Shown piece by piece: positions 7,889-63,004 of a DNA stretch of 64,000 bases; the stretch's first letter is position 1, and each line of letters opens with the position of its first letter. The stretch covers positions 496,001 through 560,000 of the forward strand of contig NZ_CP007055.1 of the NCBI RefSeq assembly GCF_000517625.1. The letters run 5' to 3'. The stretch comes from Halostagnicola larsenii XH-48 (GTDB taxonomy: Archaea; Halobacteriota; Halobacteria; Halobacteriales; Natrialbaceae). The position numbers and the translations under genes were made by a program. Below the pieces are notes generated by a model that was given only the letters and a program-made list of their open reading frames with translations, was not told where the DNA came from and did not search any database.

Positions 7889-8833
7889 TCAGTCGTTCTT
7901 TTCGGGCGTTCCGTCGCCATCGACAGCGTCGGATTGCTCTTCACCGATAGCATCGCTCCCCGTCCCCTCTCGGTCGTTGACGGTTTCTTTGACCTCCGTG
8001 GCCTGTTCGCTCACCGTCTCCTTTACTTCCGAGGTTTGCTCGCTGACGGTTTCTTTGACTTCCGTAGCCTGTTCACTGACCGTCTCTTTGACTTCTGCGG
8101 TCTGTTCGCTAACGCTTTCTTTGACCTCCGAGGTTTGCTCGTTGACCGACGCTTTCATCTCCGAGACGCGCTCGTCGACGACATCGATTGGGACTCCCGC
8201 ATCCATCCGTCGGTCTTTCTCCGCGTCGCCGAATCCGGCGCTCAGGACTCGAGTAAGCGCGTCCTCGACGTCCTCGTCGAGTTCGTCGATCTGTTCGGGT
8301 TCGACTTCGACGACGAAGCCCGTCGTGATGTTCGGAGAAGTCGGTAAAAAGAGCACAACGCGACCGTCATCGGTCTCCTTGCCCGTTTTGAACGCCGTCA
8401 TTCGAAGCCCCTCCCACGTCTCGAGTTTGACCGGTTTCTGGAGCGAGTCCTGTTCGCCGAACGCCGTTTCGGCGGCCATCTTCGAGGCGTTGTAGACGAC
8501 CCGTAACACTGGGACGCGGTTCGCGATATCGTCGACGATTCGTTCGAAAAGCCCGCCGACGGTCGTCCGCATGAGATAGCCGACGGAGAACGTCAGGATG
8601 GTAAAGACGGTCAGTACGACCAGGACCCGAAGCAATCGCGCGAGTTGCTTGCGGGTCTCTTCGGCCTCGGCACTGGTGCCACCAATCAACCACTCGAGCG
8701 CCTCCGCCTCGAGAATCAGTTCGGGGACGAAGCCGGAAATAAGTCCGTAGACCCAGTAGATCGCATAGAGCGTGATGAGGATCGGCCCGAGAACGACGAG
8801 CCCACTTGCAAAATCCCGTTTCCACGAAGCCAT
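7889..8833 (-). CDS. DUF502 membrane protein with 11-residue repeat tail
   Basis: The N-terminal 210 residues match the DUF502 family. There are two transmembrane segments (about 9-38 and 66-90), a conserved loop NRVPVLRVVYNASKMAAETAF, and a cytoplasmic domain containing MTAFKTGKETDDGRVVLFLPTSPN. Residues 226-287 are five full 11-residue units plus a partial one of the form VKETVSEQATE, with hydrophobic residues spaced 4-4-3, which predicts a right-handed (hendecad) coiled coil. A disordered acidic end follows. The family has no settled function. The repeat tail is not part of the core family and looks like a lineage-specific extension built by unit duplication. The gene is alone and convergent with ilvE. 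Confidence 0.85.
   Translation of the reverse strand: MASWKRDFASGLVVLGPILITLYAIYWVYGLISGFVPELILEAEALEWLIGGTSAEAEETRKQLARLLRVLVVLTVFTILTFSVGYLMRTTVGGLFERIVDDIANRVPVLRVVYNASKMAAETAFGEQDSLQKPVKLETWEGLRMTAFKTGKETDDGRVVLFLPTSPNITTGFVVEVEPEQIDELDEDVEDALTRVLSAGFGDAEKDRRMDAGVPIDVVDERVSEMKASVNEQTSEVKESVSEQTAEVKETVSEQATEVKETVSEQTSEVKETVSEQATEVKETVNDREGTGSDAIGEEQSDAVDGDGTPEKND
7973..8158 (-). repeat. 33-bp tandem coding repeats in the DUF502 gene
   Basis: Five complete and one partial 33-bp units encode the hendecads at residues 226-287. Unit differences are mostly single codons (TSE, TAE, ATE endings), indicating growth by in-frame tandem duplication. There are no spacers, so this is not a CRISPR array. 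Confidence 0.8.
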
Positions 8834-9695: not shown

Positions 9696-10325
9696 TCACT
9701 CGAGCGTCGCCGGAATCTCGCTCACCGCCTCGGGCAGGTCTTCGGGTTCGGACCACCGAATAACGTGATCGCCGGCGACCTCCTCGAGCGCGGCGAGGTG
9801 GGAGGCGGCCATCCCGTTGTCGTACTTCTCGCGGCGTTTCGATTCCGAGTCGTAGACGCGCTTGAGCAACCAGAGCACGTCCCTGACGTGAGATTGCTGT
9901 CGGTAGAGAAAGCCGAGTTCCCAGACGTGGCCGCCGTCGTAATCCTCGAGCACGCCGACGACGTGAGTCGCCATTCCGGCGAGGATATCGAACGCGGGGG
10001 CCCACAGTTCCAGTTCCTCGCCGGTGAAACCGAAGTCCTCGAGCCGAAAAGCGGTCGCCGACCGGCGCTCCTCGAGGAGCGAACAGACTCGCTGTCGTCG
10101 TTCGCCCGGTCCGTCCTCGCCGCCGCGGCCGATGACCAGATACCGCCCGTCGGCGCGTCTGAGGGCGGCGAACTGCGCTCCGTGGAGACGGTTTTTCAGC
10201 CGCTCGTGCTGGGCCGGGGTGAGCGAAAGCGTCGTTCCGTCCGCCTCGAGGACCGAATCGGCGTCGACGCCCTCGAGATAGCCGTCTTCGGGGGCAGTTG
10301 GCGGGGACTCGTCAGGATTCGACAT
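9696..10325 (-). CDS. Conserved-type haloarchaeal protein of unknown function
   Basis: A 209-residue acidic soluble protein I do not recognise. It has no signal peptide or membrane segment. Residues 35-95 look like a small alpha/beta unit (SLTPAQHERLKNRL, RYLVIGRGG). Residues 108-142 carry AFDILAGMATHVVGVLEDYDGG and VWELGFLYRQQ, a pattern of hydrophobic strand, acidic turn and Glu-containing helix. That faintly recalls nucleoside deoxyribosyltransferase or TIR-like Rossmann folds, but I would not name it on this. The C-terminal half is helical and charged. It is convergent with carS and stands alone. Confidence 0.7.
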   Translation of the reverse strand: MSNPDESPPTAPEDGYLEGVDADSVLEADGTTLSLTPAQHERLKNRLHGAQFAALRRADGRYLVIGRGGEDGPGERRQRVCSLLEERRSATAFRLEDFGFTGEELELWAPAFDILAGMATHVVGVLEDYDGGHVWELGFLYRQQSHVRDVLWLLKRVYDSESKRREKYDNGMAASHLAALEEVAGDHVIRWSEPEDLPEAVSEIPATLE

Positions 10326-10389
10326 ACGCCGACAACGACCGACGAAGTAATCAATGTTCCTGTCAGTTAGATCATCGCCTACGGACTAC

Positions 10390-10466
10390 TCGAGAATCAT
10401 TTGAGGGTCACTTGAGAAACACTTGAGAATCACTTAAGAATTAATTGAGAATTACTCGAGTAACCA
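10390..10466 (+). repeat. Seven tandem 11-bp repeats, probable operator array
   Basis: Seven consecutive 11-bp units run from 10390 to 10466 with consensus TTGAGAATCAC (variants include TCGAGAATCAT, TTGAGGGTCAC, TTGAGAAACAC, TTAAGAATTAA and TTGAGAATTAC). The last unit ends 24 bp before the ATG at 10491. Eleven bp is about one helical turn, so every unit presents the same face. The array occupies the promoter region of a winged-helix regulator gene. Confidence 0.8.
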
Positions 10467-10490
10467 GTCAAATTTAGCAACCAAGTGTTT

Positions 10491-10961
10491 ATGCCGGACG
10501 AGACTGTAGTAGCCGATATGCACCCGCAAACGTCCCAACCAAACGGCGGTGGTGGCGGCGAGAACGTGGGGCCGGCGATGGAGTTCAACACGTGGAAGGC
10601 GCTCCAGAAGGCCACGGACAAAACCCGCGCAAATCTTATCGCCGACGTCATCGGGCACCCGAAGGGCGCGCCGAGCGTCGACGAACTCGATTACATGAAC
10701 CCGAGCCTCGAGAAAGACGCCATCAGAAACCACCTCAAGACCCTCCAGAGCGTGAGCGTACTCGAGGAACTCGAGATCCCGCCGGGCGAACGAACGCGCG
10801 GGTTTCCCTACAAGTTCTACCGGCTGACTGACGACGCTCGCGAGCTGTTCGACCGGAACGACCTGTTCCCGCGCGGACCATGGCGACGGCAGTACGAACG
10901 CGTCCAGAAGACCGGCGAAATCGAAGAGCTCGAGGCGATGCCGCGGCCGAGTTCGGGGTGA
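10491..10961 (+). CDS. Winged-helix DNA-binding protein behind an 11-bp repeat array
   Basis: A 156-residue protein with a Gly-rich N-terminal stretch (residues about 8-25). A winged-helix core follows at about residues 36-115: TRANLIADVIGHPKGAPSVDEL, then the recognition-helix-like SLEKDAIRNHLKTLQSVSVLEELE, then a wing GFPYKFYRLTDDARELF. It resembles ArsR/PadR-like haloarchaeal regulators; the exact family is uncertain. Starts at GTG 10485, ATG 10491 or ATG 10518 are possible. The tandem repeats directly upstream suggest that it binds and regulates its own promoter. Base composition upstream is distinctly AT-rich, unlike the neighbouring housekeeping genes. Confidence 0.78.
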   Translation: MPDETVVADMHPQTSQPNGGGGGENVGPAMEFNTWKALQKATDKTRANLIADVIGHPKGAPSVDELDYMNPSLEKDAIRNHLKTLQSVSVLEELEIPPGERTRGFPYKFYRLTDDARELFDRNDLFPRGPWRRQYERVQKTGEIEELEAMPRPSSG

Positions 10962-43292: not shown

Positions 43293-43874
43293 TCAGTTTG
43301 TCGAATCGGTTTCTGACCGCTCGTCTTTCAATGACGGCTCGTCTTCGGTCGTTATCTTTTCGACCTTCTCTTCGACAGTCTCGTCTACTTTTTCTTCGAC
43401 CGTTTCATCCACCGTTTCGACGACCTTCTCGTCGACCGTTTGATCGACGGTTTCTTCGACCTTTTCCTCGACAGTCTCGTCAACCTTCTCTTCGACCGTT
43501 TCGTCGACTTTCTCGTCGACGGTCTCGTCTACGGTTTGGTCGACCTTTTGATCGACCTTCTCGTCGACCGTCTCTTCGACCTCTTCCGTTCGGGGGCGTC
43601 GATCGACGCGCTCGTTGACCGTCTCGAGTTTGTCGATAACCTCGTCGACCTCTCGAGTGAGCGTGTCTTCGACGTTCTGGGTAACCTCCGCGGTCATCCA
43701 TTCGGGATCGAACCGGGCCATCTTCCAGACGACGTGGATGACGTAGGAGATCAACACGCCGAGACCGAACGCGACGCCCACCTCCGTCCCGATGATGTTG
43801 ATCAGTGCGATCGAAATGAAGATCATCACGCCGTAGGCGAGGTCGACCAGAAAATCGACCCGGGACGGGTTCAC
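43293..43874 (-). CDS. Membrane protein with Val-acidic tetrad-repeat tail
   Basis: A 193-residue protein. Residues 5-50 contain two transmembrane segments ([22 protein letters not shown] and [18 protein letters not shown]). Residues 51-97 form a mixed helix ([26 protein letters not shown]). Residues 98-172 are a nearly pure four-residue repeat of the form V-[DE]-[EQ]-[TK]. The tail ends in polar residues. The start is GTG at 43874, directly after an in-frame stop. A helical rod with valine every fourth residue is predicted, possibly oligomeric. No family or function is known; compare the DUF502 protein at 7.9 kb, which carries 4-4-3 repeats. Confidence 0.75.
43359..43583 (-). repeat. Tetrad-coding tandem repeat
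   Basis: About eighteen 12-bp units encode the V-x-x-x repeats at residues 98-172. Units VDET and VEEK alternate, with higher-order copies (EKVDETVE), showing growth by in-frame duplication. Confidence 0.8.
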
Positions 43875-62953: not shown

Positions 62954-63004
62954 ATTCTTCGAGGGAGATCGTTATTCTTCGAGGGAGATCGTTATTCTTC
63001 GAGG
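62954..63004. repeat. 20-bp tandem duplication at the hydrolase gene 3' end
   Basis: The 20-bp unit ATTCTTCGAGGGAGATCGTT occurs at 62954-62973 and 62974-62993, and a third partial copy (11 bp) runs into the last codons of the alpha/beta-hydrolase gene. The duplication adds non-coding copies after the stop. Confidence 0.8.

What the first reader, a model, noticed from the sequence alone, without database searches (positions are those of the whole stretch)
10390..10491. Seven helical-phase 11-bp repeats in the promoter of a winged-helix gene
Seen directly: seven contiguous 11-bp units (consensus TTGAGAATCAC) ending 24 bp before the ATG of a winged-helix protein. An 11-bp period places each unit on nearly the same face of the helix, which suits cooperative polymer-like binding. 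The array replaces the space where a TATA box and BRE would be expected. Inference: an autoregulated switch or a nucleating filament (silencer). I know of no archaeal regulator described with such an array.
Basis: partly seen in the sequence, partly recalled or inferred. Interest (0 to 1): 0.72.

Follow-up and report, generated by a model that had tools for sequence, protein, structure and literature searches.

The report
Expanded operator array in a haloarchaeal promoter
In the salt-loving archaeon Halostagnicola, seven head-to-tail 11-letter DNA repeats between two divergent genes look like an enlarged version of a regulatory docking site that many related archaea carry as one to five 12-letter copies, and that the small DNA-binding protein encoded next to it probably uses to control itself and its enzyme-like neighbour.

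Summary
The array is real: seven 11-bp units at 10390-10466, far beyond chance (0 of 5000 shuffles) and found nowhere else in the genome. A TATA element (TTTATG, 10488-10493) lies downstream of the array, exactly 30 bp before the likely start codon at 10518; TTTA[T/A] sits at -30 in 64 of 89 homologues. So the array lies upstream of the core promoter and replaces nothing. Homologues in other genera carry 12-bp direct repeats of a related unit at the same distance from the gene (lag 12: z=40 over 60 loci). Four Halostagnicola species carry 7, 9, 9 and 8 units of 11 bp. Where the divergent partner is present, the intergenic length is 115+11n (192, 203, 214 bp). That partner, conserved in 102 of 122 loci, has a nucleoside-deoxyribosyltransferase-like fold. 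Recognition-helix Asn71 tends to go with period 11 and Arg/Gly with 12 (Fisher p=0.0002, but only about 1-4 origins). Best explanation: a cooperative operator array for the encoded winged-helix protein, regulating itself and the partner. Binding was not tested. New variant of a known kind.

The parts
10390..10466 (.). Array of seven contiguous 11-bp direct repeats (consensus TTGAGAAtCAC on the + strand)
10468..10478 (.). Degenerate possible eighth unit (TCAAATTTAGC), one base out of register; aligned with TTGCATTCAGC of L002
   Evidence: by eye
10479..10493 (+). Core promoter block AACCAAGTGTTTATG of the winged-helix gene; TATA-like TTTATG at 10488-10493, position -30
   Evidence: TTTA[T/A] at -30 in 64 of 89 homologues
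10518..10961 (+).
   Evidence: homologous to PDB 3U1D
10728..10730 (+). Codon of Asn71 in the predicted recognition helix (residues 66-78), Arg or Gly in most homologues
10348..10354 (-). TATA-like element (TTGATTA) of the divergent partner gene, about -23 to -29 from its ATG
   Evidence: similar sequence in L002 and L004; by eye
9696..10325 (-). Divergent partner gene (209 aa), nucleoside-2-deoxyribosyltransferase-like fold with invariant Glu136 in WELG

Best explanation
The seven repeats are an enlarged operator for the small winged-helix protein encoded just downstream. The ancestral operator, seen in many other haloarchaeal genera, has one to five 12-bp direct repeats (unit about AGTTGTGGAACT) starting about 64 bp upstream of the start codon, between the TATA boxes of two divergent genes. 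In Halostagnicola the unit became 11 bp (about ACTTGAGAAAC) and the array grew, by whole units, to 7-9 copies towards the partner gene. Most likely the protein occupies neighbouring units cooperatively, each recognition helix reading one major groove about one turn from the next, and so sets the output of both its own promoter and that of the partner. More units would give a steeper or tighter switch. Shown: the repeats, their conserved position, the conserved gene pair, whole-unit copy-number differences. Inferred: direct binding, cooperativity, and the sign of regulation (I favour repression; a position upstream of the BRE would also suit activation).
For: Lag-11 repeats in all four Halostagnicola species that have the gene (z=46). 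Lag-12 repeats in partner-to-TATA intergenic regions of other genera (z=40.6, 26 of 60 loci; also 24 and 36). Repeat units start at fixed places relative to the start codon (-64/-65, -76/-77, -89, -101 for 12 bp; -64, -75, -86... for 11 bp). Two or more contiguous anchored units in 37 of 86 homologues against 1 of 430 shuffles. Divergent partner present at 102 of 122 loci. ATG-to-ATG distances 192, 203 and 214 bp, i.e. whole 11-bp steps. Two-unit pattern found only at this locus in the genome apart from weak 3-mismatch hits, as for a dedicated regulator. More distant clades of the same protein carry different, clade-specific upstream words. Asn71 in the recognition helix goes with period 11, Arg/Gly with period 12 (Fisher p=0.0002); L053, with Arg inside the mainly Asn clade, has period 12.
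Against: No binding data. 34 of 86 other homologues have no unit at the anchored place by the family matrix; some of these have misassigned starts or rearranged upstream regions. The Asn/Arg association has only about 1-4 independent origins, and the independent-pairs test cannot reach significance. Between L002 and L003 the array differs at about 22 of 99 positions, more than the flanks and more than third codon positions (10 of 147), with no clear protection of core columns; however, L003 has lost the partner. The units lie upstream of the BRE, so repression would need polymerisation or contact with TBP/TFB.
Confidence: 0.62

Rival explanations
1. The repeats are sites of a different regulator, or an upstream activating sequence for a general factor, and the winged-helix gene is only one of its targets.
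For: The position just upstream of BRE/TATA is usual for archaeal activators (own knowledge). No direct proof that the encoded protein binds.
Against: The array is unique in the genome, which does not suit a regulator with other targets. Unit type follows the clade of the encoded protein.
Confidence: 0.2
2. Only the proximal one to three units are a working operator; the rest is a minisatellite expansion by slippage that is neutral or nearly so.
For: Copy number differs by whole units between species (7, 8, 9). Unit sequences drift fast (about 22 of 99 positions between L002 and L003). One unit in L002 and L003 is badly degenerate (TCTTAGG...).
Against: 7-9 units are kept in all four species of the genus that have the gene. 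The 11-bp register is kept with no indel between L002 and L003 despite many substitutions (weak evidence, since indels are rare).
Confidence: 0.25
3. The array nucleates an extended protein-DNA filament that silences or organises the region, or acts as a centromere-like site, as TubR does on tubC.
For: TubR is also a small winged-helix protein that represses its own operon through direct repeats and forms filaments (PMC5016525). Contiguous units about one turn apart suit side-by-side packing.
Against: No partition motor next to it; the partner is deoxyribosyltransferase-like. The locus lies on a 2.8-Mb contig among housekeeping genes. Most homologues have only one to three units.
Confidence: 0.1

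Closest known systems
TubR on tubC (type III plasmid partition), PMC5016525
   Same: Small winged-helix protein; direct repeats upstream of its own operon; repression through the repeats; helical or filament assembly
   Different: Here no tubulin-like motor; chromosomal contig; divergent enzyme-like partner; no binding or filament data
ParR on parC (type II partition, plasmid R1), PMC5016525
   Same: Ten direct repeats around an autoregulated promoter, one dimer per repeat
   Different: ParR is ribbon-helix-helix; no ParM-like gene here
SSV1 F55 operators, PMC5569661
   Same: Archaeal regulator binding tandem direct repeats at promoters, its own included
   Different: Ribbon-helix-helix fold; two repeats per site that overlap BRE/TSS; viral
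Stf76 / ORF80 of Sulfolobus plasmids, PMC4027180
   Same: Archaeal winged-helix protein (Stf76); sub-sites about one helical turn (11 bp) apart in its own promoter; cooperativity reported
   Different: Two sites 60 bp apart, not a contiguous array; no partner gene of this kind
PDB 3U1D, winged-helix protein of Halomicrobium mukohataei
   Same: Same protein family (profile E=2.6e-25; TM about 0.73)
   Different: Uncharacterised; no operator known
Retron-Eco1 effector (8QBK) and nucleoside 2-deoxyribosyltransferases
   Same: Top fold matches of the partner protein (E=4.6e-4 for 8QBK; 1S2D and 7O62 follow)
   Different: No reverse transcriptase recognised next to it and ncRNA not searched for; activity unknown; TM about 0.4-0.45 only

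Membership tests
Winged-helix family of PDB 3U1D (ArsR/GntR-like) | Sequence and fold similarity over the whole domain | tested here: met
   Profile E=2.6e-25; Foldseek TM 0.73, E=1.8e-7
Autoregulated direct-repeat operator | Repeats at a conserved position upstream of the regulator's own gene | tested here: met
Autoregulated direct-repeat operator | Direct, cooperative binding by the encoded protein | not testable with these tools
   Indirect support only
Autoregulated direct-repeat operator | Recognition-helix changes track operator changes in independent lineages | tested here: inconclusive
   Fisher p=0.0002, but about 1-4 origins
TubRC/ParRC-type partition locus | Motor NTPase (TubZ/ParM/ParA) encoded with the DNA-binding protein | tested here: not met
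   Divergent neighbour is deoxyribosyltransferase-like; flanking reading frames (Pfam) show no motor gene
TubRC/ParRC-type partition locus | Tandem direct repeats upstream of the gene of a small DNA-binding protein | tested here: met
Type II-A retron (NDT + WH genes) | Reverse transcriptase and ncRNA next to the NDT/WH genes | tested here: not met
   No reverse transcriptase recognised among the immediate neighbours; PADLOC finds nothing for the two proteins; RNA families not searched
Neutral minisatellite | Copy number free to vary, no conserved position or unit outside the species | tested here: not met
   Copy number does vary (7-9), but position and a related unit are conserved across genera

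The most novel reading that the evidence does not exclude
In this haloarchaeal family the period of an operator array is set by the regulator: an Arg-to-Asn change in the recognition helix goes with a one-base shortening of the unit (12 to 11 bp) and, in Halostagnicola, with growth of a short operator into a 7-9-unit polymer platform that jointly switches the regulator and a deoxyribosyltransferase-like effector.
Probability: 0.2. Interest if true: 0.68.

Novelty: new variant of a known kind. Interest (0 to 1): 0.5.

Why it matters
Few archaeal regulators have mapped multi-site operators. This family offers natural variants of array length (one to nine units), unit period (11 or 12 bp) and recognition-helix sequence across many species, so it could test directly how repeat number and spacing set cooperativity in front of a TBP/TFB promoter. 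It also points to an undescribed but widespread haloarchaeal gene pair: a winged-helix regulator and a divergent deoxyribosyltransferase-like protein whose closest solved fold match is the effector of an anti-phage retron.

Tried and rejected
Strict same-face phasing as the conserved property: rejected, because other genera use 12 bp. Other copies of the array in the genome: none beyond weak matches; the L163 and L167 matches are inside reading frames. Palindromic unit: only weak (p=0.05 for the 12-bp unit, 0.12 for the 11-bp unit). An unconstrained motif search gave a diffuse motif, so a seeded fit was used, which makes that matrix not fully independent of my eye. Pfam, NCBIfam, PHROGs and PADLOC gave no confident name for either protein. 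Phage records: no match to the winged-helix protein. Known archaeal regulators: papers on CsmR (Lrp/AsnC-like, semi-palindromic site) and others do not describe this family in the passages read.

Full report
Check of the observation. The sequence at 10390-10466 is seven contiguous 11-bp units, also found by Tandem Repeats Finder (period 11, score 76). In the 162-bp intergenic region the lag-11 match count is 21, with echoes at 22 and 33; in 5000 dinucleotide-preserving shuffles the highest count at any lag was 9. A 22-base two-unit pattern with up to 3 mismatches hits only the array in the whole genome. A degenerate version adds three weak 3-mismatch hits, of which those in L163 and L167 lie inside reading frames.

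Promoter anatomy. The next ATG, 10518, is 30 bp downstream of that element. In 89 non-redundant homologues, TTTA[T/A] begins exactly 30 bp before the chosen start in 64. The starts were chosen partly by a TATA-like score, but within a wide -34 to -18 range, so the sharp peak at -30 is informative. Most Haloferax volcanii coding transcripts are leaderless, and TTWT has been proposed as the haloarchaeal TATA motif (PMC4983044). The likely start is therefore 10518, and the array occupies about -128 to -52, upstream of a normal core promoter.

The gene pair. The gene to the left (9696-10325, minus strand) is divergent. A homologue lies upstream in 102 of 122 loci, including distant subfamilies of the winged-helix protein. 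AlphaFold gives pLDDT 84. The best fold matches are the retron-Eco1 effector (E=4.6e-4), with nucleoside 2-deoxyribosyltransferases further down. TM-scores are only 0.4-0.45 by query length, so this is a fold-level statement. Glu136 in WELG is invariant in the alignment and resembles the deoxyribosyltransferase catalytic Glu (own knowledge, not tested). The winged-helix protein belongs with PDB 3U1D; its model has a recognition helix at residues 66-78.

The repeats across relatives. The four Halostagnicola species with the gene all show lag 11 (z=46), with 7, 9, 9 and 8 units in L001, L002, L003 and L004. Where the partner is present, the ATG-to-ATG distance is 192, 214 and 203 bp, whole 11-bp steps. 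A fifth Halostagnicola genome (G002) has only a distant homologue. In 60 partner-to-TATA regions from other genera the dominant lag is 12 (z=40.6, 26 loci), then 24 and 36; lag 11 is weaker (z=6). A fitted unit (about TAGTTGTGGAACTA) starts at -64/-65, -76/-77, -89 and -101. Two or more contiguous anchored units occur in 37 of 86 homologues outside the genus against 1 of 430 shuffles; the maximum is five. The Halostagnicola unit aligns with it by position: ACTTGAGAAAC against AGTTGTGGAACT.

Protein and operator together. Halostagnicola and a few others have Asn at residue 71 (IRNHL); most have Arg, one clade Gly. Asn loci mostly favour lag 11 and Arg/Gly loci lag 12 (Fisher p=0.0002). The tree needs only 3-4 changes of this trait and does not rule out one origin, so the association is suggestive, not proven; L053, with Arg inside the mainly Asn clade, has period 12. 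More distant clades carry different upstream words shared within the clade. All this is what autoregulation predicts.

Evolution of the array. Between L002 and L003 (winged-helix gene coding differences 1, 0 and 10 at the three codon positions) the array differs at about 22 of 99 positions with no indel, and core columns are not clearly protected. L003 has lost the partner, which may relax constraint. Some distal units may therefore be of little use; this is the main rival.

Mechanism. I favour cooperative occupation of neighbouring units by the winged-helix protein, controlling both divergent promoters, with repression more likely than activation. Binding, cooperativity and sign are inferred. 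Known parallels in working are TubR/tubC, ParR/parC, SSV1 F55 and Stf76/ORF80. Membership in the partition systems fails for want of a motor gene. Type II-A retrons also pair an NDT-like protein with a winged-helix protein (gene abbreviations; the type assignment is own knowledge); no reverse transcriptase was recognised among the immediate neighbours, and the resemblance is only a lead.

Noticed in passing
62954-63004: Two and a half perfect 20-bp tandem copies (ATTCTTCGAGGGAGATCGTT) between a TetR-like gene and the 3' end of a convergent alpha/beta-hydrolase gene; the last partial copy overlaps the hydrolase stop region.
   Followed up: partly
7974-8155: 33/66-bp tandem repeats inside a reading frame (7889-8833, minus strand) encoding a C-terminal SEQTxEVKETV repeat.
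   Followed up: no
43360-43586: 12-bp-period repeats in a reading frame (43293-43874, minus strand) encoding an acidic EKVDETVEE repeat tail.
   Followed up: no
L091 (G000:C3:276828-277181): A paralogue of the winged-helix gene in the same genome has a different upstream motif (GGTAAACTACTTG-like), shared with homologues L026-L029 of other genera.
   Followed up: partly
L003, upstream of the gene: Halostagnicola sp. A56 keeps the winged-helix gene and the array but has no recognisable partner gene upstream.
   Followed up: partly
L095-L116 upstream regions: A distant subfamily (MSRPDA...) has its own conserved upstream words (CACCTAACGGTACGGAAA, TTCACCGAAATGGTTA) and the same kind of divergent partner.
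   Followed up: no
L022 and L112 upstream regions: 12-bp GATCNGGNNACC-like repeats upstream of L022, a more distant homologue; L112 has related but weaker repeats.
   Followed up: no
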